From Promicromonospora sukumoe (GTDB lineage Bacteria > Actinomycetota > Actinomycetes > Actinomycetales > Cellulomonadaceae): a DNA stretch of 64,000 nt. A model generated the notes under the pieces. It worked only from the letters and a program-made list of their open reading frames with translations. It had not been told where the DNA came from and did not search any database. Shown here piece after piece: positions 13,242-49,916 of the stretch. Numbering within the stretch: position 1 is the first letter of the stretch; the number at the start of each line of letters is the position of its first letter. The stretch covers positions 620,001 to 684,000 of the forward strand of contig NZ_JACGWV010000002.1 in assembly GCF_014137995.1 (NCBI RefSeq), given 5' to 3'. The position numbers and the translations under genes are program-made.

Positions 13242-13285
13242 GTGTCAGACGTACAGGTCACGGGAGTGACCTGTACGTCTGACAC
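13242..13285. repeat. palindromic intergenic element, copy 1 (likely terminator)
   Basis: 20-bp perfect arms (13242-13261, 13266-13285) with a 4-nt loop. Each outer arm starts GTGTCAGAC; the variable triplet is GTA. It lies between convergent manA and the DUF3499 gene. It is related to the elements at 28598, 32454 and 49869. Confidence 0.85.
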
Positions 13286-13297
13286 GGAGCAGGCGGG

Positions 13298-13660
13298 TCA
13301 GGCCGAGTTGTCGTCGTCCGCGCGCAGGACGCGCAGGTGGCCGCGGCGCGCCGTCTCGGTCACCGTGGGCGGTTCGGCGGGACGACGACGTCGGCCCGCC
13401 TCGCGCACGGCGTCGGCGAGGGCGGAGAGGTCGTCGGGGCTCGGCCCGGCGTCCTCGAACTCCGGCATGAGGCGGACCACCTCCCAACCGCGCGGCGCGG
13501 TCAGCCGCTCGGCGTGCTCCGCGCACAGGTCGTAGCTGTGGGGCTCGGCCAGGTGCGCCAGCGGACCCAAGACCGCGGTCGAGTCCGCGTACACGTACGT
13601 GAGCGTCACCACAGCCGCATTGGTGCAGGCCGAGCGCGAACACTGTCTCACCGATCTCAC
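13298..13660 (-). CDS. DUF3499 family protein
   Basis: 120-aa protein with an N-terminal putative zinc-binding knuckle (two cysteines in CSRSAC, then YDLCAEH) and a charged tail. The family is almost universal in actinobacteria next to manB/pmmA and a metallopeptidase-family gene (Rv3258c in M. tuberculosis); its function is unknown. The GTG at 13660 is set by a TAGTCT hexamer six nt upstream. Its usual divergent partner, the metallopeptidase-family gene, is here 8 kb away at 21911. Confidence 0.88.
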   Translation of the reverse strand: MRSVRQCSRSACTNAAVVTLTYVYADSTAVLGPLAHLAEPHSYDLCAEHAERLTAPRGWEVVRLMPEFEDAGPSPDDLSALADAVREAGRRRRPAEPPTVTETARRGHLRVLRADDDNSA

Positions 13661-13666
13661 GCGCCG

Positions 13667-13672
13667 AGACTA
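13667..13672 (-). promoter_or_regulatory. -10 hexamer, leaderless DUF3499 promoter
   Basis: TAGTCT on the minus strand with a 6-nt gap to GTG at 13660. No Shine-Dalgarno. Confidence 0.6.
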
Positions 13673-13712
13673 CGCCGCTGACCGGGTAGGACGTGCCGAA
13701 CACGCCGGGCAT

Positions 13713-14753
13713 TCACGGGCGTAACGGCGGTGATCCGGCACCAATTCGCCCGGCGGACCGTGCGAGCAGCAGCCCGGCGCCCGCGAACGCGAGGTCGACC
13801 AGGGTCAGGACCACCCGGCTGACCAGCACCGCGAGCCCCGCGGCCGGGCCCGGGAGCGCCCCGGCGAGCACCGCCGCGAGCACCAGCTCACGCACGCCCG
13901 CACCCGCGGGCGCGACGACGAACAAGAACCCCGCGGTCCACGCCAGCGCCCAGCCGCCCGTCGCCAGCGCGAACGTCCGGGGTGTCAGCGGCAGGCCCAG
14001 CGCCCCGCACAGCACCCAGAGCTGGAGCCCCGCGACCAGCCAGCCAGCCACCGACCACGCGGCGGCACGGCCCAGGCCGCCCCAGGTGGTCGGGTGCTCC
14101 AGGGCGCCGCGCCGCGCGGCGCGCAGGGCCAGGCCGACCAGCCGGTTCAGCACGGGCGGCGCGAGGACGAGCACCACCACCGGCGCCGCCCACACCACCC
14201 AGGACCACGCGCCGAGCGCGCCCGCGGAGACGAACGGCAGCGCCACCGCGCCCACCGCCGCGCCCGAGGCCACCGAGACCGCGACGGCCACCAGCATCGC
14301 GGCCGCCGACCGGCTGCGCGGCACGCGGTGCCCCGCGCCCACCTCGGCGGCGGCCACGACGTTCCACACCCCGCCCGGCACGTACTTGCCGAGCTGGCTG
14401 ATGCCGAACACCGCGACGGCGGCGCGCAGCGGCAGCGACGAGCCCAGGTCCGCGAGGACGGCCCGCCACGCCAGCAGGGTGCACCACACGTAGAGCACGC
14501 CGAGCACGACGACGAGTGTCACCTCGGCCGCGGACAGCCCGGCCGCGGCCCGGAGCAGCGCCTCGCGGTTGCCGAGCACGTACCAGAGCGCCAGCCCGAG
14601 CGCGACGGTGAGAAAGCCCCACCGGACCCACGGCGAGCGGAGCAGCGCGAGCGCGGCGGGCACGAGCCGGCCCCGGGCGCCGTCGTCGCCGGGACCGGGG
14701 CCGCCGGACGACGGCGCGTCGGGCCGCGCAGTCGCTCCGGGCGGGACGGTCAC
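13713..14753 (-). CDS. lysylphosphatidylglycerol-synthase-TM / flippase-like protein
   Basis: 346-aa integral membrane protein of the UPF0104/LPG-synthase TM type (about eight TM helices after a Pro/Gly-rich N-terminus of about 35 residues). The typical ISQLGKYVPGGVWNV segment and the C-terminal APAGAGVREL segment are present. Related proteins are proposed to move lipid-linked sugars or remodel lipids. Last gene of a three-gene operon: its GTG overlaps the stop of the GT4 gene by four bases. Context suggests transport or modification of a polyprenyl-linked glycan. Confidence 0.85.
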   Translation of the reverse strand: MTVPPGATARPDAPSSGGPGPGDDGARGRLVPAALALLRSPWVRWGFLTVALGLALWYVLGNREALLRAAAGLSAAEVTLVVVLGVLYVWCTLLAWRAVLADLGSSLPLRAAVAVFGISQLGKYVPGGVWNVVAAAEVGAGHRVPRSRSAAAMLVAVAVSVASGAAVGAVALPFVSAGALGAWSWVVWAAPVVVLVLAPPVLNRLVGLALRAARRGALEHPTTWGGLGRAAAWSVAGWLVAGLQLWVLCGALGLPLTPRTFALATGGWALAWTAGFLFVVAPAGAGVRELVLAAVLAGALPGPAAGLAVLVSRVVLTLVDLAFAGAGLLLARSAGRIGAGSPPLRP

Positions 14754-15847
14754 AGCGCGTCCCGCCGGCGCAGCTCCGCCACGAGCGGCTCGGCGACCAC
14801 CTGGGGCCGGATGCGGTCGCGGCCGCGCGCTGCCCGCGCCCGGGCCGCCGCCAGCGCCGCGGGGTCGCCGAGCCGGACGAGCTCGGCCGCGAGCGCCGCG
14901 GCGTCGGCCACGGGGACCAGCTCGACGTGCTCGCCGAGCGCGCGGCGCTGCGGCGGGGTGTCCGAGGTGACGACGACGCAGCCGGCCGCGAGCCCCTGGT
15001 AGACCTTGTTCGGCACCACGCGCAGGCCCTTCGGGGTGTCGCCGAAGATGCCGAGGCAGACGTCGTGCGCGGCGACCAGGGCGGGCAGCTCTCCGGGCTC
15101 GACCCAGTCGTGCCAGGTGACGCCGGGTGTCGCGGCCAGCACCTCGCGGGCGCGCGGCAGGTCCTGGCCGGTGCCGACCATCGTGACGCGCAGGGGCGCG
15201 CGCGCGGCGACGGCGTCGCGCAGGGCGGCGGCGAGGACCGGGGCGCCCTGGAGCGGGGTGAAGAGGCCGAAGAAGACGACGGACAGGCTTCCTTCGCCGG
15301 TCGAGCTTGTCGAGACCGGCGGGGTCCGCCACTCGTCCGGGGCGCCGACCAGGACGACGACGCCCTTGTCCGGGTCGGGCAGCATCCGCCGGTGCTCGTC
15401 GGTGTCGGTCACCACGACGTCGGCGCAGGCGACGGCGAGCCGGTCCAGGCTGGTGAGCAGCCGGACGCGCAGGCCGGCGGCGCCGCGGTCGGCGGCCGTG
15501 TCCCCGGCGAAGACGAGGTGGTCGAGCACGACGACGGAGCGGGGGTACAGCAGGCGCGCGAGGAGCACGTCGAAGTGGCCGAGGTACCCGACGAGGACCG
15601 CCGCCGGCCGCCCTTCCGCGCGCCGGTGCCGCACCGCGTCGCTCACGAGCGCGGCCCAGCACCGCAGCAGCCGGGCCGCGAGGGCCGGCAGCCGCCACGG
15701 CTGCTGGAGCATCCGGACGCGCTCGGCGGTGGAGAACCCGAGGGGCCGGTTCAGCTCGGTGACCTTGACCCCGTGGGCGCGCAGCCCGGCGACCAGGACG
15801 GCGGTGCGGGGGTGCCGTGCGGCGTCGTAGGTGCCGAAGGTGATCAC
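14750..15847 (-). CDS. GT4-type glycosyltransferase
   Basis: 365-aa glycosyltransferase with two Rossmann domains. The C-terminal GT4 signature is visible: GLFTPLQGAPVLAAAL, then GDTPKGLRVVPNKVYQGLAAG with the EX7E-like loop degraded, and late SDTPP. Predicted to add a sugar from a nucleotide donor at the cytoplasmic face. GTG start overlapping the GT2 stop by four bases, and its own stop overlapping the next start by four. A dispersed repeat (15296-15320) lies in the coding sequence in frame and encodes the STSST run between the two domains. Confidence 0.85.
   Translation of the reverse strand: MITFGTYDAARHPRTAVLVAGLRAHGVKVTELNRPLGFSTAERVRMLQQPWRLPALAARLLRCWAALVSDAVRHRRAEGRPAAVLVGYLGHFDVLLARLLYPRSVVVLDHLVFAGDTAADRGAAGLRVRLLTSLDRLAVACADVVVTDTDEHRRMLPDPDKGVVVLVGAPDEWRTPPVSTSSTGEGSLSVVFFGLFTPLQGAPVLAAALRDAVAARAPLRVTMVGTGQDLPRAREVLAATPGVTWHDWVEPGELPALVAAHDVCLGIFGDTPKGLRVVPNKVYQGLAAGCVVVTSDTPPQRRALGEHVELVPVADAAALAAELVRLGDPAALAAARARAARGRDRIRPQVVAEPLVAELRRRDAL
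15296..15320. repeat. dispersed GGTCGAGCTTGTCGAGACC element, copy 1
   Basis: 25-bp element with palindromic ends, inside the GT4 gene and in frame. The same core occurs at 60021-60068 and 62170-62215, and a relative at 33047-33083. Confidence 0.8.
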
Positions 15848-16932
15848 TGCACGGCCGCCGGGACGTCCGCGAGGCCGGGCTCGGCGGGCCGGGCCTGGGC
15901 GGCCGCGGGCTGCGCCGTGCGGGCCGCGGTCCCGGGCAGGTGGCCCGACGCCGGACGGCCGCCCGCGCCGTCCACCGCAGCAGGCCCCGTCGTCGTGCCG
16001 TACTGCACCTCCTTGAGGCGCTCCAGCGTCTCCTCGAGCAGCACCCGGTTGGTGCGCTGGAGGTCGGCGAGCACGAGCAGGGCGAAGCTGAGCAGCGCGC
16101 CGACCAGCGACGTCGCCCCGAGCACGATCGACTGGAGGTGCTGCCCCGCGGTCCCGGTGGCGAGCAGCACCGCGTACCGGCCGAACGGCAGCACGGCCCC
16201 GAGCGCGAACAGCAGCCCGAGCGTGACGAACACGGTGTGCGGCCGGAACATGACGTAGGACCGGCTGATCGCCTGCCCCGACTTGGCGATGTGCTGCCAC
16301 ATGCTCGAGAAGAGCCGGGACTCCCGGGTCTTCGGGTTGGTCGTGACCGGCACGCTCACGATCCGCATGCGCTTGTGCCCGGCCTGGATGATCGTCTCCA
16401 TGCAGTAGCTGAACTGCGTGACGACGTTCAGCCGCAGCAGCGCCCCGCGGGAGTAGGCGCGGAACCCGCTCGCGGCGTCGGGCAGGTCGGTGCCGGCGGC
16501 GAAGTTCACCACCGCGCTGCCGACCTGCTGCAGCAGCTTCTTCAGCGGGGAGAAGTGCTCGATGGTGGCGGTCTGCCGGTCCGCTATGACGATGTCGGCG
16601 TCGCCCAGCACCACGGGCATGACCAGGTCGCCGATGCGGTCCTGCGGGTACTGGTTGTCGCCGTCGGTGTTCACGACCACGTCCGCGCCGTGCCGCAGCG
16701 CGTAGTCCACGCCGTCGCGGAACGACCGGGCCAGGCCCATGTTCCGCGTGTGGCGCACGATGTGGCGCACGCCGAGGCGGCGCGCGACCTCCACGGTGCG
16801 GTCCGTGGACCCGTCGTCGATGACCAGGATCTCGATCTCGTCGACCCCCGGGATGCTGCGGGGGATCGTGGCGAGCACGTCAGGAAGGGTCTCTTCCTCG
16901 TTCAAGCAGGGAATCTGCACGAACAGCTTCAT
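15844..16932 (-). CDS. polyprenyl-phosphate-type glycosyltransferase 2
   Basis: 362-aa GT2 with a DPM1/GtrB-like GT-A domain (residues 1-225): FVQIPCLNEEETL, VIDDGSTD, and NTDGDNQYP as the metal site. About three TM helices follow (about 235-310), then an Ala/Pro-rich tail. Such enzymes charge a polyprenyl phosphate with one sugar for use outside the cell. First gene of the overlapping operon; ATG at 16932, with a GAAGG site about 9 nt upstream. It would supply lipid-linked sugar to membrane GT-C enzymes such as the DUF2142 proteins next door (inference). Confidence 0.88.
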   Translation of the reverse strand: MKLFVQIPCLNEEETLPDVLATIPRSIPGVDEIEILVIDDGSTDRTVEVARRLGVRHIVRHTRNMGLARSFRDGVDYALRHGADVVVNTDGDNQYPQDRIGDLVMPVVLGDADIVIADRQTATIEHFSPLKKLLQQVGSAVVNFAAGTDLPDAASGFRAYSRGALLRLNVVTQFSYCMETIIQAGHKRMRIVSVPVTTNPKTRESRLFSSMWQHIAKSGQAISRSYVMFRPHTVFVTLGLLFALGAVLPFGRYAVLLATGTAGQHLQSIVLGATSLVGALLSFALLVLADLQRTNRVLLEETLERLKEVQYGTTTGPAAVDGAGGRPASGHLPGTAARTAQPAAAQARPAEPGLADVPAAVQ

Positions 16933-17086
16933 GGCCCTGTGCCTTCGATGAGCAGTGTCCGGAGGAGCAGTGACTGGCTTCACGAGCGTAGGAGCGGTAC
17001 ATGACCAGGGCGTGAACACTGCGTTCCCAGAAATGACTGTTACCGGGCCGTGACCGGGGCGCCCGGTCGGGGCAACCTGCCGTGGC

Positions 17087-17092
17087 TACCCT
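17087..17092 (+). promoter_or_regulatory. -10 hexamer, leaderless DUF2142 promoter
   Basis: TACCCT with a 6-nt gap to GTG at 17099; no Shine-Dalgarno. Confidence 0.6.
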
Positions 17093-17098
17093 GCACGC

Positions 17099-18757: not shown

Positions 18758-20241
18758 GCCGGGCGCACTCGGGCATCGCACGGACCGAACGCCTGGCGGT
18801 CCTGGCCGCGGTGCTCTCCGGGATGCTCCTGGCCCTGACCGTCGCGCTCGCCGACGCCCCGTACGCGACCGGCGACGAGCCCCCGCACGTCGACTACGCC
18901 TACCAGGTGTGGCACGGCGAGCTGCCCGTCTTCGAGGACGGGCTGGAGCTGCGGCCCGACGGCGCCTGGCTCGCCCCCGTGCAGTGGACCGCCCAGCACC
19001 CGCCGCTGTACTACCTGCTCATCGCCCCGCTGGTAGGACCGCTGGCCGACGCCGGGCACCCGGTCGCCGCCGTCTACGCGGCCCGCGGCGTGAACGTGCT
19101 GCTCAGCGGGGTCTTCGTGCTCGCCGCCTGGTCGAGCGCGCGCCGGCTGACCCGGCCGGGCAGCGCGCTGCCCCCGCTCGTCGCGTTCCTCGCGGGGGCC
19201 ATGCCCGCCGCCGCGCACGTGGGCGGCGGCGCCTACAACGACCTGCTGGCGGCGACGGGCGTCACCGTCCTGTTCGGGCTGGCCGCGACCGCGGTCCGGC
19301 GCGGGCTCGACGCCCGGCTGATCACCTTGCTGTCGCTGGTCGCGGCGGCGTGCGCGCTGACCCGGCTGTCCGCCGCGCTGATCGCCGCCGTGGTCGCGGC
19401 CTTCGCCCTGGCCGCCGGGGCCGTCCGGGCCGCGCAGAGCCGGGGCCGGTGGGCGCACGTCGGCGCGCTCGCGCTGGCCGGGCCCGGCGCGGTGCTCGCC
19501 ACCAGCGGCTGGTTCTACCTGCGCAACCTGGAGCTGACCGGCACGGTCACCGGTTCGCACTTCGACTGGGCACTGGCGAACCAGAACCGGCAGGAGCGAT
19601 CCGTCGTAGCGGTGCTCGCCGACCCCGAGACCTGGGCCCGCCTGCCCGACCTGTTCTGGTGGGCCGGGCGGCTGCCCCCGAGCACGCCGCTCACGAGCAG
19701 CACGCTCGTCGTCACGGCCGTGCTGCTCGTGTGGACGCCCCTGGTGATCGCGCTGGTCGTGGCGCTCCGCCGGCGCGGCAAGCAGGGTGAGCGCCGGCTG
19801 CCGGACGACGAGCCGGGCGCCCTGCCGGTCGACCGGCTGCTGCTGCGCGCCCTGCCTGTCGTCGCCGTCGTGGTCTCGGTGACGGTTCAGGTCACGTACG
19901 CCGCGAGCAGCGGCGGCGTCTACCCGCGGTACCTGCTGGTCGTGTCGCTCCCGCTGTGCCTCGCGATCGCGGCGGGCCTGGCCGCGCGGCCCCGGCTGCT
20001 CGTCCCGGCGTGGACCGCGCTGACCCTGCTCGACCTCGCGGTGTGGCTCGCCGTCGAGCTGGCCGCGCCCGCGCCGCCCGGCTACTACGCGGAGCTGCCG
20101 CTGCCGGCCGCCGCCGTCGGCGCGGTCGCGGCGGCCGCCGTCGGGGTGTCGGCGGCGCTCGCGCTGCGGGCGAACCGGGCAGCGGCCACCACCGCCGCGA
20201 TCCAGACCAGCACGACGACCGCGCCGGCCACGACGAGCTGA
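18754..20241 (+). CDS. DUF2142-like polytopic membrane protein
   Basis: 495-aa relative of the preceding protein with TGDEPPHVDYAYQ and QHPPLYY, about 10-12 TM helices, and a Thr/Ala-rich C-terminal tail. Co-translated with the upstream gene by an ATGA overlap. Its last 157 nt overlap the 3' end of the convergent gene at 20085-21725, so the final TM helix and tail are encoded opposite another protein's C-terminus. Likely a GT-C-fold glycosyltransferase; inferred from the motif only. Confidence 0.8.
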   Translation: MSRAHSGIARTERLAVLAAVLSGMLLALTVALADAPYATGDEPPHVDYAYQVWHGELPVFEDGLELRPDGAWLAPVQWTAQHPPLYYLLIAPLVGPLADAGHPVAAVYAARGVNVLLSGVFVLAAWSSARRLTRPGSALPPLVAFLAGAMPAAAHVGGGAYNDLLAATGVTVLFGLAATAVRRGLDARLITLLSLVAAACALTRLSAALIAAVVAAFALAAGAVRAAQSRGRWAHVGALALAGPGAVLATSGWFYLRNLELTGTVTGSHFDWALANQNRQERSVVAVLADPETWARLPDLFWWAGRLPPSTPLTSSTLVVTAVLLVWTPLVIALVVALRRRGKQGERRLPDDEPGALPVDRLLLRALPVVAVVVSVTVQVTYAASSGGVYPRYLLVVSLPLCLAIAAGLAARPRLLVPAWTALTLLDLAVWLAVELAAPAPPGYYAELPLPAAAVGAVAAAAVGVSAALALRANRAAATTAAIQTSTTTAPATTS

Positions 20242-21725: not shown

Positions 21726-21731
21726 GCCCTC

Positions 21732-21737: not shown

Positions 21738-21756
21738 GGGGTGCCCTGTCGAGATC

Positions 21757-21810
21757 GGTCGGTTGCGTTGAGATCGGTCGGTCGGTGGACCGATCTCAAC
21801 GCAACCGACC
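21757..21810. repeat. 23-bp perfect inverted repeat between divergent genes
   Basis: Arms 21757-21779 and 21788-21810 with an 8-nt spacer; GATCGGTCGGT occurs more than once in the left arm. It lies between divergent promoters, about 20 nt upstream of the -10 for 20085-21725, so it is more likely an operator or structural element than a terminator. Confidence 0.75.
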
Positions 21811-21898
21811 GAAGTCGCGCCCCTGGAGCACCACCTTGGAGCACCATTCAGGCGCGCGACCCGGGCGTCAGGTGACAGATCGCGGCCCCGATCCGACG

Positions 21899-27859: not shown

Positions 27860-28201
27860 TCAGACGGCGCGACGCTTGAGCTTGCGGCGCTCCCGCTCCG
27901 AGAGTCCACCCCAGATGCCGAACCGTTCGTCGTTCTCAAGCGCGTAGTCCAGGCACTCGGCGCGGACCTCGCAGCCCGAGCAGACCTTCTTGGCCTCGCG
28001 TGTGGACCCGCCCTTCTCCGGGAAGAAGGCCTCCGGGTCGGTCTGCGCGCACAGGGCGCGCTCCTGCCACCCGAGCAGGGAGTCGTCCGGCTCGTTCAGC
28101 ACATACAGCTCGCCGAAGAGCGGGAGGACCGGTGCGACCGGCGCCACCTCGCTCTCGGCGTCAGTCGGGAACTCCACGTCCGATTCCAGCATGTTCCACA
28201 T
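27860..28201 (-). CDS. whiB2: WhiB-family transcription factor WhiB2/WhmD
   Basis: 113-aa iron-sulfur regulator. Four cluster cysteines (Cys51, Cys74, Cys77, Cys83), the GIWGG turn at 95-99 and a basic KLKRR tail for DNA contact. The acidic N-terminal extension and place next to the GT2-DUF5719 genes match WhiB2 (WhmD in mycobacteria, WhiB in Streptomyces), which controls septation and division with a partner WhiA. I chose ATG 28201 because GGAGGGG lies six nt upstream; the ATG five codons earlier sits on that same site. A candidate promoter lies about 140 nt upstream. Confidence 0.93.
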   Translation of the reverse strand: MWNMLESDVEFPTDAESEVAPVAPVLPLFGELYVLNEPDDSLLGWQERALCAQTDPEAFFPEKGGSTREAKKVCSGCEVRAECLDYALENDERFGIWGGLSERERRKLKRRAV

Positions 28202-28597: not shown

Positions 28598-28645
28598 ACG
28601 TGTCAGACGTACAGGTCCCCCGGGTGACCTGTACGTCTGACACGT
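28598..28645. repeat. palindromic intergenic element, copy 2
   Basis: 20-bp arms (28598-28617, 28626-28645), 8-nt loop, outer sequence ACGTGTCAGAC, variable triplet GTA. Unlike the other three copies it lies between divergent genes, 37 nt upstream of the -10 at 28682. Confidence 0.85.
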
Positions 28646-28694: not shown

Positions 28695-29429
28695 ATGCAG
28701 ATCGCGCTCCCCGGCTCGGGCCCCGTGCCCGACGTCGCGACCCTCCTCGCCCGTCTCGCCGCCGACGGCGGCCGCCCGCGCCTGACCTGGTACGGCGACG
28801 ACGGCGAGCGGGTCGAGCTCTCCGGCGCCGTCCTGGCCAACTGGGCCAGCAAGACGGTCAACCTGCTCGTCGAGGAGTTCGACGCGGCCCCGGGCACCAC
28901 CGTCGTCGTCGACCTGCCCGTGCACTGGCGCACCGCCGTGTGGGCGCTGGCCGCCTGGCGGACGGGCGCGACGGTCGCCCTGCCCGACGCCGCCGTGGCC
29001 GGACCGGACGTCGTCGTCACGGACACCCCGGAGCGGTGGGCCGACGGCGGGGCGGACCTCGTCGTCGTCTCGCTGCCCGCGCTGGCCCGGCGGTACGACG
29101 GCGACCTGCCGGCGGGCGCCATCGACGCCGCGTCGGCCGTGATGACGTACGGCGACGTGATCGGCTGGGTGCCCGAGGTGGACCCGAACCAGGACGCGCT
29201 GGTGACCGCCGCGGGCGCCGTCGGGCACAAGGGACTGGTCCCGGAGCCCGGCGACGGTACGCGCGTGCTGGTCGACGGGCGTGGCCCCGTCGCCGACGTG
29301 CTGCGCGACCTGCTCGGCACCTGGGCCGGCGGCGGCTCGGTGGTCCTCACCTCCGCCGCGACGGCCGCGGCCCTGGAGGCCGACGACGCCCGCCTCGAGC
29401 GCCTGCGCGGCAGCGAACGCATCGTCTGA
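28695..29429 (+). CDS. TIGR03089 family protein
   Basis: 244-aa protein resembling a short, catalytically incomplete N-terminal part of an acyl-CoA/AMP-binding enzyme (TWYGDDGERVELSGAVLANW, then VVVDLPVHWRTAVWALAAWRTGA). The family is confined to actinobacteria and lies beside LCP genes (Rv3268 next to Rv3267). No function is established. ATG start with a leaderless promoter; the LCP gene follows after 93 nt. Confidence 0.88.
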   Translation: MQIALPGSGPVPDVATLLARLAADGGRPRLTWYGDDGERVELSGAVLANWASKTVNLLVEEFDAAPGTTVVVDLPVHWRTAVWALAAWRTGATVALPDAAVAGPDVVVTDTPERWADGGADLVVVSLPALARRYDGDLPAGAIDAASAVMTYGDVIGWVPEVDPNQDALVTAAGAVGHKGLVPEPGDGTRVLVDGRGPVADVLRDLLGTWAGGGSVVLTSAATAAALEADDARLERLRGSERIV

Positions 29430-30846: not shown

Positions 30847-32433
30847 ATGTCAGATCCCAGAACGTCGAACCGTTCGGCCCCGCAGGCCGACGACGACGTC
30901 ACGCGTGTCCGGATACCGCCCAGCTTCACGCCCCAGGGCGCGAGCGGGCGCCCGGGCGCGGACGACGCCATCCCGGTCGGCGACACGGGCGAGCGCCCGC
31001 GCACCGTGCCGGACGCGTCGAGCAGCAAGCAGCAGGGCGGACCCGCGAATGCGGAGACGCCCGGCGTCGGGGTTCCCGGCGTCGGTGGCGCCCACCGCAT
31101 CGGACGGCCGGAAGGCTCCGACGAAGCGCGCTACGAACCACGTATCCGTAGACAGTCTTCTCGGGAGGTACCGGTGTCCGGCGATCGCAGGGGAAACACT
31201 CCCCCGCCTGTTCCACCACGTAGGTCGGGCATGCCCGCGCGCAGCGAGTCCGCCGGACAGGTGCCGCGCTCGATCCCGCCGCGCCAGGCGCCCCAGGGCG
31301 GCGGCCAGCCGCCGCAGGCCATCCCGCCGGGCCGTCCGGTCCGGGCGAGCGCCCAGCCCGTGCGCCCGACGCCGGTCCGCAGCGCCCCGCGCCCCGCGGC
31401 CGGCGGCAACGGACGCGGCGGCAGCTACCCCGCCGGTGCCCTCGCCTCGGGCGGGCGCGGCGGCCGGGGCGGCGGCAACATCCGCATCCGCAAGGGCCGC
31501 GTGGCCGGCGTCATCGCCGTGCTGGTGCTCCTGGCGATCCTCGCGTGGCCCATCGGGCTGCTGATCTGGGCCAACGGCAAGATCCAGCACGTCGAGGCGC
31601 TGTCCGACGCGAAGAACACGCCGGGCACCACCTACCTGCTCGCCGGCTCGGACGCCCGCGGCAGCGGCGGCATCAACGACTCCACGAGCGGTGCCCGGAC
31701 GGACACGATCATGCTGCTGCACAAGCCGCGGTCGGGCCCGGTGGCGCTCATCTCGATCCCGCGTGACACCTTCGCGCAGATGCCTGACGGCTCGGGTGGC
31801 AACAAGATCAACGCCGCCTACTCCTACGGCGGCGCGCCGATGCTGGTCCAGACCGTGGAGCAGCTCAGCGGTCTGACCGTCGACCACTACGTCGAGGTGG
31901 GCTTCGGCGGCGTCGAGGGTGTCGTGGACGCCGTCGGCGGCGTGCGGCTGTGCTACCCCGAAAACGTGCACGACGTGAAGTCGAAGCTCAAGTGGAAGAA
32001 GGGCTGCCACGTCGCGGACGGCAAGACCGCACTCGCCTTCTCCCGCATGCGCTACGCCGACCCGACGGGCGACATCGGCCGCGCGCAGCGTCAGCAGCAG
32101 GTCATCGGGCAGATCGGCCAGAAGGTCGCCGACCCCGCCGTCCTGCTCAACCCGGTCAGCCAGGTCGGCCTCGCCGACGCCGGGCTCTCGGCCCTGGTGA
32201 CCGACACCGACACCGGCATCATCGACATCGCCCAGCTCGGGCTGGCGTTCCGGTCCGCGAACGGCAAGGACGGCGTGACCGGCACCCCGCCGATCGCGTC
32301 GATCAACTACCGGACGCCGTCGGGCGCCTCGGCGGTGCTGCTGGACGAGAACCAGACCGGCGAGTTCTGGACCAAGATCCGCGACGGCGAGTACCCGGCC
32401 GGCGAGAAGATCGGCGGCATGCCGGGCTCCTGA
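30847..32433 (+). CDS. LCP family glycan ligase with long cytoplasmic N-terminus
   Basis: 528 aa as read from ATG 30847. Residues 1-215 are disordered and rich in Pro, Arg, Gly and Ser (PPRRSG, RPVRASAQPVRPTPVRS); one TM helix at about 222-243; LCP domain about 260-500 with AGSDARGSGGIND, ISIPRDTFAQ and SRMRYADPTGDIGRAQRQQQV. Same ligase role as the preceding gene. An internal GTG at 31174 has an excellent GGGAGG site and a locally AT-richer upstream stretch, so a shorter protein of 419 aa may be made instead or as well. Converges on purE across a palindrome. Confidence 0.88.
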   Translation: MSDPRTSNRSAPQADDDVTRVRIPPSFTPQGASGRPGADDAIPVGDTGERPRTVPDASSSKQQGGPANAETPGVGVPGVGGAHRIGRPEGSDEARYEPRIRRQSSREVPVSGDRRGNTPPPVPPRRSGMPARSESAGQVPRSIPPRQAPQGGGQPPQAIPPGRPVRASAQPVRPTPVRSAPRPAAGGNGRGGSYPAGALASGGRGGRGGGNIRIRKGRVAGVIAVLVLLAILAWPIGLLIWANGKIQHVEALSDAKNTPGTTYLLAGSDARGSGGINDSTSGARTDTIMLLHKPRSGPVALISIPRDTFAQMPDGSGGNKINAAYSYGGAPMLVQTVEQLSGLTVDHYVEVGFGGVEGVVDAVGGVRLCYPENVHDVKSKLKWKKGCHVADGKTALAFSRMRYADPTGDIGRAQRQQQVIGQIGQKVADPAVLLNPVSQVGLADAGLSALVTDTDTGIIDIAQLGLAFRSANGKDGVTGTPPIASINYRTPSGASAVLLDENQTGEFWTKIRDGEYPAGEKIGGMPGS

Positions 32434-32453
32434 CCCGCCCGCTTCCCGCTACG

Positions 32454-32495
32454 TGTCAGACGCCCAGGTCCCTCGAGGGACCTGGGCGTCTGACA
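32454..32495. repeat. palindromic intergenic element, copy 3 (likely terminator)
   Basis: 42-bp perfect palindrome (arms 32454-32474, 32475-32495) starting TGTCAGAC, variable triplet GCC. Between convergent LCP and purE genes. Confidence 0.85.
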
Positions 32496-32509
32496 TGTCA
32501 GGAGGCGGG

Positions 32510-33019
32510 TCAGAGCTGGGCGCGGAGCTTCTCGCCCTTGGCGTGCGCGATCTCGCTCAGCTCGGCCGCGAACGCCTCCAGGCGCTCCCGCAGCGCAGCG
32601 GCGTCCGCGCCCTCGCCCGAGGCGAGGATGCGCGCCGCGAGCAGGCCCGCGTTCCGCGCCCCGCCGATCGACACCGTGGCGACCGGGATGCCCGCCGGCA
32701 TCTGCACGATGGACAGCAGCGAGTCCATGCCGTCCAGGTACTTCAGGGGCACCGGCACGCCGATCACGGGGAGCGGCGTCACCGACGCCAGCATGCCGGG
32801 CAGGTGTGCGGCACCGCCCGCGCCCGCGATGATCGCGCGCAGGCCACGGCCCGCGGCCTGCCGCCCGTAGTCGATCATCTCGGTGGGCATACGGTGGGCG
32901 GAGACGACGTCGACCTCGACGGGCACGCCGAACTCGCCCAGGACCTCGGCCGCCGCCTGCATGACGGGCCAGTCGGAGTCCGACCCCATCACGATGCCGA
33001 CCTGCGGGTTGGTGCTCAT
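32510..33019 (-). CDS. purE: N5-carboxyaminoimidazole ribonucleotide mutase
   Basis: 169-aa class I PurE, converting N5-CAIR to CAIR in purine synthesis. [20 protein letters not shown] with the catalytic His, [11 protein letters not shown] and the GIPVATV segment are all present; length is standard. ATG at 33019 overlaps the purK stop by four bases. In M. tuberculosis purE/purK (Rv3275c/76c) lie close to the same LCP gene. Confidence 0.97.
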
Positions 33020-38857: not shown

Positions 38858-38864
38858 CCCGCTC

Positions 38865-38925
38865 GCTGAGTGCTGGGTATTTGCGCTTCCGCGGCCGTTC
38901 CGGGCGCAATTACCCAGCACTCAGC
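38865..38925. terminator. 22-bp inverted repeat between convergent genes
   Basis: Arms 38865-38886 and 38904-38925 pair with a single mismatch across a 17-nt loop. It has an AT-richer middle (GGGTATTTGCGC) and separates the regulator gene from the convergent permease gene. Confidence 0.8.
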
Positions 38926-38949
38926 GGCGGCTCGGTGGCTGGTCGGTGG

Positions 38950-41702: not shown

Positions 41703-41763
41703 GAGATCTCTCCCTCGAGTCGTTGCGGCTGCTGCGTGCTGACCTGCGCCCTACCTGTTCCTC

Positions 41764-44382: not shown

Positions 44383-45212
44383 GCACCCGCCCCGGACACG
44401 GCGCCGGTGATTCCGGTGGTGACGGCGGGTTCGAGGGTGCGCAGGGCGTCCAGACCGGCCATCGCGGACTCCGGCGTCGGATCGCTGATGTCGCCCGCGA
44501 TGCGGCCGTCCGCGATGAGGACCACCCGGTCCGCGTAGGCGGCGGCCGACGGGTCGTGGGTGACCATGATGATCGTGCGGCCCAGCTCCCGCACCGAACG
44601 GCGCAGGAAGGACAGGACCTCGGCGCCGGAGCGCGAGTCGAGGTTGCCGGTCGGTTCGTCCGCGAACACGACGTCGGGCTGCGCGATCAGCGCACGCGCG
44701 ATCGCGACCCGCTGCTGCTGCCCACCGGAGAGCTCACCCGGACGGTGCGTGAGACGGCCGGTCAGGCCCAGGGTCTCCACCAGGGTGTCCAGCCACGCCT
44801 TGTCCAGGGTGGCACCGGCCAGCTCGACGGGCAGGGTGATGTTCTGCTCCGCGGTGAACATCGGCAGCAGGTTGAACTGCTGGAACACGAACCCGATCCG
44901 GTCGCGACGCAGCTTCGTCAGGGACTTGTCGTTCAGGCCCGTGATCTCGGTCTGGCCGAGGAACGCCTGACCGCTGGTCGCGGAGTCCAGACCCGCGAGC
45001 AGGTGCATCAGGGTCGACTTGCCCGAACCGGACGGGCCCATGATCGCGGTGAACTTGCCCTGCTCGAAGTCGACGTCCACGCCGTCCAGGGCGCGCACGA
45101 TCGCCTCACCCTTGCCGTACGTCTTGGTCAGGTTCCGGGCCCGTACGGCACGGGCGGCGCTGTCCGGGCCGGGGGCGGGCTGGTCCGCCGGGACGTACAC
45201 GGTGGTGTCCAC
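44379..45212 (-). CDS. ABC transporter ATP-binding protein, LolD/MacB type
   Basis: 277-aa ATPase. Walker A GPSGSGKST, Q-loop VFQQFNLLP, signature LSGGQQQRVAIARAL, Walker B VVFADEPTGNLD and switch His in MVTHD are all intact. C-terminal 45 residues are an extension. GTG start at 45212 with GAGGAG six nt upstream. Heads the exporter operon. Confidence 0.95.
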   Translation of the reverse strand: MDTTVYVPADQPAPGPDSAARAVRARNLTKTYGKGEAIVRALDGVDVDFEQGKFTAIMGPSGSGKSTLMHLLAGLDSATSGQAFLGQTEITGLNDKSLTKLRRDRIGFVFQQFNLLPMFTAEQNITLPVELAGATLDKAWLDTLVETLGLTGRLTHRPGELSGGQQQRVAIARALIAQPDVVFADEPTGNLDSRSGAEVLSFLRRSVRELGRTIIMVTHDPSAAAYADRVVLIADGRIAGDISDPTPESAMAGLDALRTLEPAVTTGITGAVSGAGA

Positions 45213-45593
45213 GAGAATCTCCTCGGTTGTGACGCTTGGTAGGGCGCTGCTGGGTCGTGCGGGCGGGCCGCCGGTGGTGGCTCGCACCGGGCGATGCCTG
45301 CGGGAAGGTTTCCCGTCTGCGGCCCGGAAGTGGTCCGGCCTTCCCGGGGAGACCCCGGTTCGGCCGGCATCAACGAACCTACGGAGCCGGGGGCGGTCAC
45401 GGCATCGGGCGTCGGCCTGATCCTTCCCTGGTCTCGTCATCCCTTGGTCGTACGTCTGGTCAGCCCCGGGTAGGGGCAGTCCCCCAGGGGTTGTGCCCCA
45501 GGGAGCGCGACGCCGGGCCTGTGGAAACTGGGTTTGTGCACAGAAGCCCTGGTCACAGCCCCGGAGGTGCCCGACGGCGGTGAGGCTGGGGGC
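45213..45593. other. divergent intergenic region, no gene seen
   Basis: 381 nt between the ATPase and the EccC-like gene. I see no credible coding sequence. A TAGGTT hexamer on the minus strand (45376-45381) could be the -10 for the exporter operon, with a long leader; there is no good -35. Short G/C inverted repeats around 45475-45510 are weak. Confidence 0.5.
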
Positions 45594-48500
45594 ATGACCA
45601 CCACCCCGACGTCCGACGGCGCCGTGCGCGTGACCCTGCACCCCGGCGAGGACCTCCTGCTGCGGCAGGGCGCCCGCCTGGGCGCCCTGCGCGCACCCCT
45701 CGCGGCGCTCGTCCGCCGGCCAGAGCTGCGGTGGGCGCGGCTCACCGCCGACGGCGCCGCCCTGGGCGACGACCAGGTGGTCGGCGTGCGGCCCCTGCTG
45801 CCCGGGGTGGTGCTGCGGGCGGGGAGGCCTGGTTCCAACGGGGACGGGGCGGACGGCGGGGAGGGCGATGGTGGGGCGGGTGGCGGGGACCCGACCCGTG
45901 CCGGGCCCGGCGCCGGTCTCGCCGGGCGCTGGCTGGTGGTCCGGGTGGCCGGTCCCGCCGCCGGGACGGTCGTCGGTGCCGGCGGTGCGTGGGCCGCGCT
46001 CCGGACGTGGGTTCGGCTGCGGCACGGCGGGCGCCTCGTGATCCGCCGGTCGCGGGGCCCGGCGACCTGGCTCGGGCCCGGGCCCGCGGCCGCGCCGGGC
46101 GGGCTCTCGTGGCCGCTCGTGCTGCTCCCGGCCGTCGCTTCGCTGGTGCTCGCGGCGGCCCTGCGGCAGCCCGTGCTGGCGGTGTTCGCACTGGTCGGCC
46201 TGGCTGTCGCCGCTCCACAGCTCCGTGCGGCGCGGCAGCGAACGGTGCCGCGCGACGGCACCCGGGGCACCGTGCGAAAGCTCCCCGGTCCCGCGCACCT
46301 CCTCGCCTTCGCGTACGCCGCGTCCCACGTCTCGACGGGCGCGTGGGCGGCGGCGCGGGAGGCATGGTCCGCGGACAAGGCCGGTGGTGGGCCCGGTTCC
46401 GGCGCGGCTCCCCGGGGGCCGGCGCCCGGGCCTGGCGCGCCGTGGGCCGCCCTTCTGCGGGACGGTTGCGTCGCCGTGCTCGGCCCCGGTGACCTGGCCC
46501 GGTCCGTCGCCCGCGCGCTCGTCGCCGGGCCGGCCGCGCGGGGTGCGGCGGTCCGGGTCGCCGACGACGCCCCGGGCTGGTCCTGGCTGCGCTGGCTGCC
46601 CGGGGGCGGGCCGACGGTGCTGGTCGTGGACGGGCTGCCGGACGGGGGCAGGGCAGCGGTCGGCGACGTCGTGCCCTCCGGTCCCGGGGCGCCCGGCGCA
46701 GTTGCGGCGACTGCCGGACCCGTACCGCCCGCCCTCGTGATGTCCGTCGGGACCGTGCCGCCCGGCTGCCGCTCCGTCGTGCGGGTGCTCGACGCACGCC
46801 GGGTCCGGATCACCGCGCCGGACGGCGCCGCGCGGGTCGTCCCGCTGGTCGGCGTCACTGCCGAGTGGGCCGAGCACCTGGCCCGGCTGCTCGCGGGCGG
46901 GGCCTGGCTCGGCCGGACGGCCGCGGCGCTCGGCGGACCCTCAGGCACCGGCGACGATCTCGTCGGCCGCGGCTCGGGCGGGATGCTCGGCGGCGCTGCC
47001 CGGACCGGAGGGCCCGTGGCGCGCCCGGACGACCCCCGGCTGCCGGCCACGGTGTCCCTGACCAGGGCACACGGCCTCGACGAGGTGCCCGGGCCGGACC
47101 TGGTCGCCGCCCGCTGGTCGGGCGCCGAGGGCTGGGCCGTGCCGCTCGGCATCGGCGCGGACGGCGGGCCCGTGCTCCTGGACCTGGTCCGGGACGGCCC
47201 GCACCTGCTCGTCGCGGGCACCACGGGTTCGGGCAAGTCCGAGCTGCTGCAGACGCTCGTGCTCGGGCTGGCGCTGACCCGGTCCCCCACCGACCTCGCT
47301 CTCGTGCTCGTCGACTTCAAGGGCGGCGCGAGCCTCGGCGTGTGCGGACGGCTGCCGCACGTCGTCGGCCAGGTCACCGACCTCGAACCCGGGCTGGCCG
47401 CGCGGGCGCTCAGTGGGCTGCGCGCGGAGCTACGGCGCCGGGAGCGGGTCCTCGCCGACCACGACGTGGCGGACGTCGTCGCGCTCGCGCCCGGTGTGCT
47501 CCCCCGGCTGGTGGTCGTGATCGACGAGTTCCGCGCCCTGGCCGACGACCTGCCCGCGTTCCTGCCCGCACTCCTCCGCGTCGCGGCGCAGGGGCGGTCG
47601 CTTGGTGTGCACCTGGTGCTCGCGACCCAGCGGCCGGGCGGTGCCGTCGGCCCCGACCTGCGAGCCAATGTCAGCGCGCGGGTCGCGCTGCGGGTGACCG
47701 ACCCCCTGGAGTCCCGCGACGTCGTCGACGACCCCGCCGCCGCGTACCTCCCCCGCACGGCCCCGGGCCGGGCCGTGCTCCGGATCGGGTCGGCGCCGCC
47801 CGCGGTGCTGCAGTGCGCGCACGCCACGGCGGCGCCCGAGGCCCGCACGCCCCTGGTGCGCCGGGCCCCGGCCCGGGCTGTCGGCCGTGCGTCAGCCCTG
47901 GTCATCGCGGTACCGGCCGACGCGGTACGGAGCCCCGCGAAGGCAGACGCCGCCAGCCGGGATAGCGCAGGGCCCGACGTCGCCACCCTGGTCGTCGACG
48001 CCACTCGCCACGCCGCGCAGGCGCTGGGGCACCGGCCGGCCGAACCGCCCTGGCTGCCCCCGCTCCCCCGGTCGGCCGGGGTCGCCTGCCTCCCGCCGCG
48101 CGCCCGCCGGGACCGGGCCGGCCTCGCGCTCGCGCTGGGCGATGACCCGGACCGGCAGCGCCGCACGACCGTCACCTGGCGGCCGGAAGACGGCCACCTC
48201 GCCGTCGTCGGGCAGGCCCGCTCGGGGCGCACCACCGCACTGGTCACCCTCGGTCTGGCCGCGCTGCGGCAGGGGTGGACGGTCCACGGGTTCGCGCGCG
48301 ACGCCGCAGGTCTCGCCGCGCTGGCGCACCATCCCGCCTACGGGGGCACCCACCGCCCGGACGACGCCGGGGCATTCGCCCACCTGCTGCCCGACGCCGT
48401 CGACAACGGCAACGGGACAGGTACCGGCACCGGCACGCCCCGGCCCGTCACGCCCGGGACCAGCACGCCCGACGTCGACCGCACCCTCGTGCTCGTCGAC

Positions 48501-48869
48501 GGCATCGAGGACGCGCGCGGCGCGCTGCCGGCCGCGGCCCTGCGGTCGGGGATCGCCTTCGCGGTGACGGCCGACGGCCCGTCGGTCGGCGGCCTCGCGG
48601 CACGGTTCGGGCCGCGTCTGGTGCTGCTGGGCACCGACCGCGCGTCCGACGTCGTGCTCGGCGCCCCGGTCCGGCTCGCGGGCGCGGGCGGACCGCCGGG
48701 ACGGGCCGCGTGGTGCGGCCGGGGCGAACCGGCGCTGTGCCAGGTCCTGGACCCCGGCAGGCTGGAACCAGACGGGATAGGACCGGACCAACGCGAACCG
48801 GAACGAACCGGGGCTCTCAGTCCTCCGAGCGGGTCCCCGACGTCGCCGCGACGACGGAGGGCGTCATGA
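45594..48869 (+). CDS. EccC/EssC-like FtsK-SpoIIIE ATPase (orphan)
   Basis: 1091 aa. An N-terminal small domain (about 1-80, FHA/ubiquitin-like in context), then two TM helices around 175-205 with GPATWLGPGPAAA before them. ATPase 1 has Walker A GTTGSGKS at 542-549 and Walker B VVVIDEF at 640-646, plus ATQRPGG. A second ATPase-like domain (about 830-1060) has GQARSGRTT at 873-881, where Arg879 replaces the Walker lysine, so it is likely non-catalytic. This layout matches type VII secretion motors. No WXG100, EccB/D/E or mycosin gene is in the window. ATG 45594 follows a GGGGG run. Confidence 0.8.
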   Translation: MTTTPTSDGAVRVTLHPGEDLLLRQGARLGALRAPLAALVRRPELRWARLTADGAALGDDQVVGVRPLLPGVVLRAGRPGSNGDGADGGEGDGGAGGGDPTRAGPGAGLAGRWLVVRVAGPAAGTVVGAGGAWAALRTWVRLRHGGRLVIRRSRGPATWLGPGPAAAPGGLSWPLVLLPAVASLVLAAALRQPVLAVFALVGLAVAAPQLRAARQRTVPRDGTRGTVRKLPGPAHLLAFAYAASHVSTGAWAAAREAWSADKAGGGPGSGAAPRGPAPGPGAPWAALLRDGCVAVLGPGDLARSVARALVAGPAARGAAVRVADDAPGWSWLRWLPGGGPTVLVVDGLPDGGRAAVGDVVPSGPGAPGAVAATAGPVPPALVMSVGTVPPGCRSVVRVLDARRVRITAPDGAARVVPLVGVTAEWAEHLARLLAGGAWLGRTAAALGGPSGTGDDLVGRGSGGMLGGAARTGGPVARPDDPRLPATVSLTRAHGLDEVPGPDLVAARWSGAEGWAVPLGIGADGGPVLLDLVRDGPHLLVAGTTGSGKSELLQTLVLGLALTRSPTDLALVLVDFKGGASLGVCGRLPHVVGQVTDLEPGLAARALSGLRAELRRRERVLADHDVADVVALAPGVLPRLVVVIDEFRALADDLPAFLPALLRVAAQGRSLGVHLVLATQRPGGAVGPDLRANVSARVALRVTDPLESRDVVDDPAAAYLPRTAPGRAVLRIGSAPPAVLQCAHATAAPEARTPLVRRAPARAVGRASALVIAVPADAVRSPAKADAASRDSAGPDVATLVVDATRHAAQALGHRPAEPPWLPPLPRSAGVACLPPRARRDRAGLALALGDDPDRQRRTTVTWRPEDGHLAVVGQARSGRTTALVTLGLAALRQGWTVHGFARDAAGLAALAHHPAYGGTHRPDDAGAFAHLLPDAVDNGNGTGTGTGTPRPVTPGTSTPDVDRTLVLVDGIEDARGALPAAALRSGIAFAVTADGPSVGGLAARFGPRLVLLGTDRASDVVLGAPVRLAGAGGPPGRAAWCGRGEPALCQVLDPGRLEPDGIGPDQREPERTGALSPPSGSPTSPRRRRAS

Positions 48870-49239
48870 GCAGCACGCCGACGGCGACCGCGACCACGAG
48901 GGCCACCCACCCGAGCACGACGGCGAGCCCGCCGCCGCTGCCGACCGCCGCGATCGACCCGATGATCTGAAAGAGCTGCCAGGTCACGACGGGTCCGCGG
49001 CCGGATCGGCGACCTGCGAGAAGTGCCCGGCAGCTCACCACGAGAACCCAGGCAACTCCCAGCAGGAAGAGAACCAGAAAGAGACTCACGCCTAGTGACG
49101 AGGAACCGCCCGTAAGGAGTTCACCAAGTAACACCACGGCGAAAGCAACGAGGCCGATCACCTCAGCCATGACGCCGATCACGAGGGCACGAAGAAACGC
49201 CGGGACACGGGGCGCGAAAAAGGCTTCCAGTACTGGCAC
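48817..49239 (-). CDS. four-helix integral membrane protein, unknown
   Basis: 140 aa with four hydrophobic helices (about 16-38, 46-66, 88-105, 108-125) and a Thr/Ser-rich tail. Not recognised. GTG 49239 is preceded by TATCCT at eight nt. Its last 53 nt overlap the 3' end of the convergent EccC-like gene. Could be an accessory to that gene, but nothing shows it. Confidence 0.65.
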   Translation of the reverse strand: MPVLEAFFAPRVPAFLRALVIGVMAEVIGLVAFAVVLLGELLTGGSSSLGVSLFLVLFLLGVAWVLVVSCRALLAGRRSGRGPVVTWQLFQIIGSIAAVGSGGGLAVVLGWVALVVAVAVGVLLMTPSVVAATSGTRSED

Positions 49240-49247
49240 GACGGACT

Positions 49248-49253
49248 AGGATA
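49248..49253 (-). promoter_or_regulatory. -10 hexamer before membrane-protein gene
   Basis: TATCCT on the minus strand, 8 nt before GTG at 49239. Confidence 0.5.
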
Positions 49254-49337
49254 CTGGTGACAGGGGTATTCACAATAGTGTGACGGATACCTCAGGGTTC
49301 ACGGCTGAGAAACTTCGCCGTAACCCCTTGTGCGAGC

Positions 49338-49355
49338 GTTCACGAGCGTGTGAAC
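49338..49355. promoter_or_regulatory. candidate operator upstream of whiB1
   Basis: GTTCAC-N6-GTGAAC palindrome immediately before a TAGACG hexamer (49357-49362), about 170 nt upstream of whiB1. The half-site order is the inverse of a CRP site. Low certainty. Confidence 0.3.
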
Positions 49356-49526
49356 CTAGACGCAGCAATCCCACACACCCCCGAACACACCCCCGTCGGT
49401 CGCCGCCTGGCGCACAGGGATCGGAAAACGATCCACAACCAGACCTGCGCGCCCCAGACGCACGACGACGATGCTCCCTAGTGGCGAGCCGGACGGTGGG
49501 AAGTTCCTTCCAAGGAGTACGTGACC

Positions 49527-49775
49527 ATGGACTGGCGCCACCGCGCAGCATGCCTCGAAGAAGACCCCGAGCTGTTCTTCCCCATCGGCAATACGGGCCC
49601 CGCCCTGTTGCAGATAGAGGAGGCCAAGGCCGTGTGCCGTCGCTGCGACGTAGTCGACACCTGCCTCAAGTGGGCAATCGAGTCCGGCCAGGATGCCGGC
49701 GTCTGGGGCGGCATGAGCGAGGACGAGCGCCGTGCGCTCAAGCGCCGCACCGCGCGCGCTCGTCGCGCCGGCTGA
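49527..49775 (+). CDS. whiB1: WhiB-family transcription factor WhiB1
   Basis: 82-aa iron-sulfur, NO-sensitive regulator: cysteines 9, 37, 40 and 46 bind the 4Fe-4S cluster; GVWGG at 58-62; basic ALKRRTARARR tail. The very short N-terminus (MDWRHRAACLEEDPELFFP) is diagnostic for WhiB1. ATG 49527 chosen over GTG 49521 because AAGGAG is nine nt from ATG but only three from GTG. A hairpin terminator follows. Convergent with pdtaS, the same arrangement as Rv3219/Rv3220c. Confidence 0.95.
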   Translation: MDWRHRAACLEEDPELFFPIGNTGPALLQIEEAKAVCRRCDVVDTCLKWAIESGQDAGVWGGMSEDERRALKRRTARARRAG

Positions 49776-49812
49776 CCGACAGCAGCACAGCACCACCCAG
49801 CACCACATTCTC

Positions 49813-49859
49813 CGCGAGCCACGCCTGAGCACACCCCCTCCGCCCAGGCGTGGCTCGCG
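49813..49859 (+). terminator. whiB1 terminator hairpin
   Basis: 15-bp perfect arms (49813-49827, 49845-49859) with a 17-nt pyrimidine-rich loop, 38 nt after the whiB1 stop. Confidence 0.75.
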
Positions 49860-49868
49860 TCGTTATCC

Positions 49869-49916
49869 ACGTGTCAGACCCACAGGTCACCCGGGTGACC
49901 TGTGGGTCTGACACGT
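49869..49916. repeat. palindromic intergenic element, copy 4 (likely terminator)
   Basis: 48-bp perfect palindrome (arms 49869-49892, 49893-49916), outer ACGTGTCAGAC, variable triplet CCA. Between convergent whiB1 and pdtaS. Confidence 0.88.

What the first reader, a model, noticed from the sequence alone, without database searches (positions are those of the whole stretch)
13242..49916. Four intergenic palindromes with fixed ends and covarying middle
Elements at 13242, 28598, 32454 and 49869 all start (A)CGTGTCAGAC and contain CAGGTC, but the triplet between is GTA, GTA, GCC or CCA, and the opposite arm always changes to match. Paired change in both arms shows that the stem itself is kept. 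Three copies separate convergent genes; one lies in front of a leaderless promoter. This fits a dispersed family of bidirectional terminators, or a mobile palindrome family, with an unusually constant sequence.
Basis: seen in the sequence. Interest (0 to 1): 0.75.

Follow-up and report, generated by a model that had tools for sequence, protein, structure and literature searches.

The report
Jumping DNA hairpins at gene ends
The four repeats are copies of a short, near-perfect DNA palindrome that has spread through one soil-bacterium genus, sits mostly just behind genes and sometimes inside them without breaking the reading frame, and is one of about ten such families in that genome, by a way of moving that is still unknown.

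Summary
The unit is a 48-bp palindrome, ACGTGTCAGAC-NNN-CAGGTC-N8-GACCTG-NNN-GTCTGACACGT, with about 190 copies in this Promicromonospora genome. The inner triplet matches in both arms in 49 of 58 copies read (17 expected). The half-motif is found in 12 of 13 genomes of the genus and as 4 single hits in 187 others of the family.

Copies come and go: at 17 places comparable between species, 18 of 72 comparisons keep the element; elsewhere the place holds nothing or another palindrome. Four of 58 copies lie inside three genes, all in frame; orthologues without the insert exist. Of 43 copies beside a gene 3' end, 40 lie within 30 nt of it (4.4 expected). About ten other families share this habit.

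So this is a REP/RPE-like mobile palindrome family. It probably acts as a two-way 3'-end RNA hairpin, but it has no U-tract. No target duplication, Y1 transposase or reverse transcriptase was found. How it spreads, and why several families share a 19-nt unit, is open.

The parts
13240..13287 (.). F palindrome, triplet GTA/GTA, between convergent genes (phosphomannose isomerase-like 12006-13232 + and a predicted gene 13298-13612 -)
   Evidence: F also in G008 at this slot, other palindromes in 6 and none in 2 of the 9 alignable sister genomes
28598..28645 (.). F palindrome, triplet GTA/GTA, divergent region between a WhiB-like gene (27860-28201 -) and a + strand gene starting at 28695
   Evidence: F found in none of 10 sister comparisons
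32451..32498 (.). F palindrome, triplet GCC/GCC, between convergent LytR-CpsA-Psr-like gene (31231-32433 +) and purE-like gene (32510-33019 -)
   Evidence: same element with compensated pair changes in G008 and G010, and in G004; other palindromes in 7 and none in 1 of 8 further genomes
49869..49916 (.). F palindrome, triplet CCA/CCA, 15 nt from the stop codon of a PdtaS-like kinase gene (49932-51422 -)
   Evidence: absent in the 3 sister genomes that could be aligned
49813..49859 (+). older hairpin just before the fourth F element; in three sister genomes it is followed by a T-rich tail, here not
   Evidence: read from the aligned segments and; one case, judged by eye

Best explanation
The four elements belong to a mobile, non-coding palindrome family (here called F, 48 bp) of the genus Promicromonospora that works like REP/BIME and Rickettsia palindromic (RPE) elements. 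Shown: near-perfect palindrome of nearly fixed length, about 190 copies, gain and loss between species, in-frame presence inside genes whose relatives lack it, strong placement just behind stop codons, and use of the same slots by other palindrome families. Inferred: copies insert as whole units by an unidentified machinery; those in tolerated places survive; behind a stop codon the transcribed hairpin gives mRNAs a stable 3' end from either side (U-less termination, or a stop for exonucleases after Rho termination), so some slots stay occupied while the occupying family turns over.
For: 191/188 half-motifs, control 0; 12 of 13 genus genomes, 4 single hits in 187 other genomes of the family. 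At 17 own F copies with alignable flanks, 18 of 72 sister comparisons keep F and 54 do not. Four of 58 copies are in frame in three genes; short-loop orthologues exist for the Fpg/Nei-like gene (G001, G006, G007), for the third gene (G010, G006) and for the FolP-like gene (20 of 79 homologues with an empty loop). 40 of 43 copies beside a gene 3' end are within 30 nt of it, 4.4 +/- 2.0 expected, at most 13 in 2000 random placements; 22 of 22 tandem copies are nearer the upstream stop. Triplets equal in 49 of 58; 14 double changes that stay paired in 306 orthologous pair cells.
Against: No target-site duplication, no parent transposon seen in the 26% of the genome read, no Y1 transposase, no reverse transcriptase, so mobility is inferred from comparison, not from a known mechanism; loss could explain part of the presence/absence pattern. 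No U-tract. The direction test for RNA pairing is too small (5 mismatches fit the transcribed strand, 1 does not, 11 fit neither). The two slots in the window supply 20 of the 25 cells behind the statement that F slots stay occupied. One genus genome (G001) has no half-motif, so the family is dispensable.
Confidence: 0.72

Rival explanations
1. Purely selfish palindromes without a 3'-end function. They survive behind genes and in protein loops because insertion there does little harm, and arm-to-arm template switching in replication, not selection, keeps the stem perfect.
For: The same protein loop takes inserts of several kinds; copy number varies from 0 to 191 in the genus; no U-tract; 8-nt centre not coupled between arms (22 of 58 equal, 17.5 expected).
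Against: Tolerance alone does not easily give 22 of 22 tandem copies with a median of 15 nt behind the upstream stop and 112 nt before the next start. Convergent slots empty here are nearly always empty elsewhere (18 of 19 cells) while F slots are mostly filled (21 of 25 cells, 20 of them from two slots).
Confidence: 0.3
2. Ordinary bidirectional intrinsic terminators that arose in place, look alike because of shared constraints, and do not move.
For: Placement just behind stop codons, excess between convergent genes (21 observed, 12.7 expected), stable hairpin.
Against: 48-bp sequence identity across unrelated places; species-by-species presence/absence; copies in frame inside genes; no U-tract.
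Confidence: 0.04
3. A MITE: a transposon of the DDE type reduced to its two terminal inverted repeats, moved in trans.
For: Inverted repeats, high copy number, gain and loss.
Against: No target-site duplication in 57 copies (392 offset/length tests, largest z 2.37, 0 near-perfect repeats); no longer element with the same ends among the 25 partnerless octamers in 1.66 Mb plus the window; long inserts at three slots of sister genomes looked like ordinary genes by eye.
Confidence: 0.12
4. A DNA signal: a binding site for a chromosome-organising protein or a DNA-uptake sequence, with TGTCAGAC as core.
For: TGTCAGAC and CAGGTC are almost invariant in 76 copies; 7 copies carry extra TGTCAGAC units exactly 19 nt outside.
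Against: Solitary cores are not enriched: 25 partnerless octamers, 11 of them such outer units, against 27 (trinucleotide) to 46 (dinucleotide) expected. Family nearly missing in several species. 3'-end placement is not expected for a general DNA signal.
Confidence: 0.1

Closest known systems
REP/BIME palindromes, GTAG and CGTC superfamilies (PMC3733652; abstract, three sections and part of the discussion read)
   Same: Short dispersed palindromes, many copies, several families per genome, mostly behind genes (that paper: under 20 bp from 3' ends between convergent genes), some inside genes including DNA-repair genes; CGTC repeats likewise lack a known transposase
   Different: F has a stem of about 20 pairs with no unpaired GTAG or CGTC tag, is a single symmetric unit, and no Y1 transposase exists in the genus; the words actinobacteri- and Streptomyces do not occur in that paper's main text
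Rickettsia palindromic elements (RPE; known to me from passages in PMC3733652 and from memory, original papers not read)
   Same: Palindrome present in frame inside unrelated protein genes
   Different: F is 48 bp and mostly intergenic; sequence relation not tested
Miniature inverted-repeat transposable elements (recalled; review PMC10969869 seen only in a listing)
   Same: Inverted repeats, high copy, non-coding
   Different: No target-site duplication and no parent transposon found
U-less highly structured transcript ends of Streptomyces clavuligerus (PMC8269248, abstract and one results section read)
   Same: Strong hairpin at transcript ends without a U-tract; 353 of 535 highly structured ends there lack it
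   Different: Not presented as dispersed repeats in the parts read; for F no transcript ends are known
Stem-loop repeat families at gene 3' ends (PMC1590033, passages only)
   Same: Repeat families of hairpins near the 3' end of genes
   Different: Other species and other sequences

Membership tests
REP of the GTAG/RAYT kind | High-copy dispersed palindromes, mainly intergenic and behind genes | tested here: met
REP of the GTAG/RAYT kind | Unpaired GTAG tag at one end | tested here: not met
   the consensus of 57 copies holds no GTAG end; ends are paired ACG/CGT
REP of the GTAG/RAYT kind | RAYT (Y1 transposase) in the genome | tested here: not met
   PF01797: 0 of 13 genus genomes; found in 5 of 14 control genomes
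REP of the CGTC kind | Unpaired CGTC/TGTC tag, 8-9 bp stem, 4-5 nt loop, CCA-like tail (as given in PMC3733652) | tested here: not met
   F has about 20 pairs and paired ends
Rickettsia palindromic elements | Palindrome in frame inside protein genes, missing in orthologues | tested here: met
   4 of 58 copies in three genes; orthologues without it
Rickettsia palindromic elements | Sequence relation to RPE | not tested
   no RPE sequence was compared
MITE | Terminal inverted repeats | tested here: met
   the element is one inverted repeat
MITE | Target-site duplication | tested here: not met
   57 copies
MITE | Longer autonomous element with the same ends | tested here: inconclusive
   none seen among partnerless octamers in about 26% of the genome
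Intrinsic terminator | Stable hairpin just behind genes | tested here: met
Intrinsic terminator | U-tract after the hairpin | tested here: not met
   0 of 22 tandem copies with T4; T 16.4% against 16.6%
Intrinsic terminator | Stops transcription | not testable with these tools
   needs 3'-end mapping
DNA uptake sequence | Solitary core strongly over-represented | tested here: not met
   25 partnerless octamers against 27-46 expected

The most novel reading that the evidence does not exclude
Promicromonospora carries a community of about ten palindrome families that share one architecture (constant outer core, arm units repeated at about 19 nt in several families, placement behind genes, tolerance inside genes) and are moved by one still unknown machinery that is neither a Y1 transposase nor a reverse transcriptase. 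The 3'-end hairpins of the genome are largely supplied and replaced by this traffic: slots are kept, families turn over.
Probability: 0.35. Interest if true: 0.8.

Novelty: new variant of a known kind. Interest (0 to 1): 0.6.

Why it matters
GTAG-type REPs are tied to RAYT transposases and, with CGTC REPs, were found mostly in Proteobacteria (PMC3733652). Here a dense set of families sits in an actinomycete genus in which no such enzyme was found. In the stretch examined 76 of 192 convergent junctions carry a clustered palindrome, and species differ slot by slot. That makes two questions testable: how palindromes without a known transposase spread, and whether transcript-end hairpins are supplied by mobile DNA. 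The in-gene copies, with decayed versions in relatives, also give a series showing how such DNA turns into ordinary protein loop.

Tried and rejected
Rfam: no family at gathering threshold in the window. RAYT/IS200-type transposase: 0 of 13 genomes. Reverse transcriptase RVT_1: 0 of 13. Target-site duplication: none. Uptake-sequence idea: no excess of solitary cores. A DNA query from C1:1.0 Mb found good matches in G004 only, not in G008 or G010, so it gave no synteny. Long inserts at three slots of sister genomes were looked at as possible parent transposons; by eye the proteins looked like ordinary genes (not searched). Direction test of G-U against A-C mismatches: too few. A consensus scan for U-tract terminators in 44500-51500 found none at the F element. 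Literature: nine searches; none of the listed titles or abstract starts described these palindromes in Promicromonospora or relatives. That covers only the held open-access library, those terms and the rows listed.

Limits: gene calls are from my own codon-usage caller, not an annotation; contexts can be wrong for short genes (for example the stretch of about 1 kb before 49813). Only 1.66 Mb of contig 1 plus the window (26% of the genome) was read; copy number elsewhere rests on the half-motif count. One of the 12 palindrome clusters of 3 or more looks like low-complexity sequence, so I speak of about ten families. Sister slots were scored by an inverted-repeat score, and F below 32 of 48 identities counted as not F, so some 'not F' cells may be decayed F (for example G004 at C1:1604605). 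FolP insert classes are regex labels for 79 of the 120 listed proteins; some rows labelled 'other' are visibly decayed F (P0009, P0019). The link of the VEPVET-like inserts to another palindrome family is my own translation, not a tool result.
Full report
WHAT IS THERE. Fifty-seven copies show a 48-bp unit, ACGTGTCAGAC-NNN-CAGGTC-N8-GACCTG-NNN-GTCTGACACGT; beyond the outer ACG/CGT the flanks look like background. I call it F. The genome is a Promicromonospora: the nine nearest named relatives of the window's PurK are all of that genus (the own record may be left out there). Half-motifs: 191 forward, 188 reverse, 0 for the reversed control pattern.

SPREAD. Of 13 genus genomes (this one included) 12 have the half-motif, with 1 to 191 forward hits; next highest are G008 (73) and G010 (64), and G001 has none. 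In 200 genomes of the family, the 187 of other genera gave 4 single hits, and the reversed control 1. A second family (CGTTGAGTGCKGGNTNTT) is abundant here (65/55) and in G003 (41/36), where F is nearly absent (3/0); it is rare in G011 (4/6), absent in G006 and gave 1 hit in the 57 genomes of other genera. So families rise and fall independently.

NOT ALONE. In 1.6 Mb, 332 strong inverted repeats were found; 292 of 982 intergenic regions of 20 bp or more hold at least one. 176 of the 332 fall into 12 sequence clusters of 3 or more members, F being the largest (46); ten clusters have 8 or more members. 76 of 192 convergent regions carry a clustered palindrome. Unclustered hairpins have a similar 3'-end habit: 63% within 30 nt of a 3' end, against 65% for the clustered ones, so the habit is not special to repeats. 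Three other clusters have a copy each in the window, at 21755, 38864 and 60020.

POSITION. Of 52 copies in the first 1.6 Mb plus the window, 21 are convergent (12.7 expected at random), 22 tandem (24.1), 6 divergent (12.2) and 3 genic. Of the 43 next to a gene 3' end, 40 lie within 30 nt of it; random placement in the same intergenic space gives 4.4 +/- 2.0, at most 13 in 2000 trials. In tandem pairs all 22 are nearer the upstream stop (median 15 nt against 112 nt). No T4 run follows in any of the 22, and downstream T is 16.4% against 16.6% intergenic (all). The RNA fold averages -40.7 kcal/mol, range -48.3 to -23.9.

GAIN AND LOSS. At 17 F copies whose flanks align in sister genomes, 18 of 72 comparisons carry F and 54 do not (segments). 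At the purE slot of the window F is present in G004, G008 and G010; of 8 other alignable genomes 7 have a different palindrome and 1 none. At the 13240 slot F is in G008; six genomes have other palindromes and two none. Of 39 convergent slots looked at, those that could be aligned gave: where this genome has F, sister slots hold F 7, other palindrome 14, none 4; where it has another palindrome, 13 palindrome, 16 none; where it has none, 1 palindrome, 18 none. So slots tend to stay filled or empty while the family changes. The cells are not independent: 20 of the 25 F cells come from the two window slots, and the species are related.

INSIDE GENES. Four of 58 copies lie in three protein genes: two in an Fpg/Nei-like glycosylase (C1:508127-509206, Pfam H2TH), one in a dihydropteroate synthase-like gene (C1:220320-221327, Pfam Pterin_bind) and one in a gene with a weak, below-cutoff match to aceric acid hydrolase (L204:16259-19339). 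All four read in the same frame, giving (D/P)VSDxQVxxxTCxSDT. That frame is free of stops in 45 of 58 copies; the other two have stops in 29 and 58 of 58. The first glycosylase loop is short in G001, G006 and G007 and holds decayed F-like peptide in G002, G004, G005 and perhaps G012. In the third gene G010 and G006 lack the insert and G008 has it. In FolP the insert falls where the solved chain 2vp8 (dihydropteroate synthase 2) has gaps. Among the 79 FolP homologues aligned (of 120 listed), 13 carry F-like peptides, 5 a VEPVET-like peptide, 20 an empty loop and 41 other or decayed inserts. Several other clusters also give k-mer groups inside well-scored predicted genes (for example 4 groups of the CGTTGAGTGC family); these were not inspected.

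PAIRING. In 76 elements (58 own, 18 from sister genomes) stem positions 4-11 and 15-20 are nearly invariant; positions 12-14 vary and covary. Triplets are equal in both arms in 49 of 58 own copies (17.2 expected); the centre shows little coupling (22 against 17.5). In 18 orthologous comparisons (306 pair cells, pairs 4-20): 257 unchanged, 14 double changes still paired, 2 double unpaired, 33 single, 8 of these restoring a pair. With about 0.11 changes per base, independence would give 3 to 4 double changes (my arithmetic; rows are not independent). This supports keeping of the stem but does not separate selection from arm-to-arm copying. The RNA direction test is too small: in tandem copies 5 wobble-type mismatches fit the transcribed strand, 1 the other, and 11 are neither.

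HOW IT MIGHT MOVE. No target duplication in 57 copies; no Y1 transposase and no reverse transcriptase in 13 genomes by Pfam search. Seven F copies carry one or more extra TGTCAGAC units exactly 19 nt outside: 11 of the 25 partnerless octamers. Two other clusters show a 19-nt period in their arms (9 of 30 and 13 of 16 arms), one shows 16 nt (6 of 6), others 18 or 22 in few arms (5 of 42, 5 of 52). I cannot explain this; it hints at a common machinery.

WHAT IT MOST LIKELY DOES. Mobile palindromes of the REP/RPE type, kept where a hairpin behind a stop codon is harmless or useful, and then acting as a two-way 3'-end hairpin. In S. clavuligerus 353 of 535 highly structured transcript ends lack a U-tract (PMC8269248), so its absence does not exclude this. 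At 49813-49859 an older hairpin has a T-rich tail in three sister genomes but not here, and F sits just behind it: suggestive of replacement, one case only.

NOVELTY. Placement behind genes, several families per genome and in-gene copies are known for REPs (PMC3733652). What I did not find described: this sequence family, an actinomycete host without RAYT, the long paired ends, the slot-wise turnover of families between sister species, and the 19-nt unit (searches listed under Tried and rejected). Filed as a new variant of a known kind, not as a GTAG or CGTC REP or a MITE, because defining features were tested and not met.

Noticed in passing
L035 (C1:86310-86408), L037 (C1:129797-129876), L106 (C1:1506139-1506218) and four more copies: Extra TGTCAGAC units exactly 19 nt outside 7 F copies; two other palindrome clusters show the same 19-nt period in their arms.
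   Followed up: partly
window 21755-21812, 38864-38926, 60020-60071: Single copies of three other dispersed palindrome families of this genome.
   Followed up: partly
FolP-like proteins P0001-P0079: One loop of this protein holds different in-frame inserts in different species, from empty to F-like and VEPVET-like, with intermediates that look decayed.
   Followed up: partly
G000 contig 1, about 1.70-2.85 Mb: Forward F half-motifs look sparser here than in the first 1.7 Mb, judging from the capped list.
   Followed up: no
L239-L240 (G009), slots homologous to window 13240 and 32451: Both junctions in G009 hold a short non-palindromic stretch TTGGTTGTGGGCG, which resembles one arm of a palindrome seen in G006 at the first slot.
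   Followed up: no
window 49813-49859: Conserved hairpin with T-rich tail in three sister genomes whose tail is degraded here, next to the F element.
   Followed up: partly
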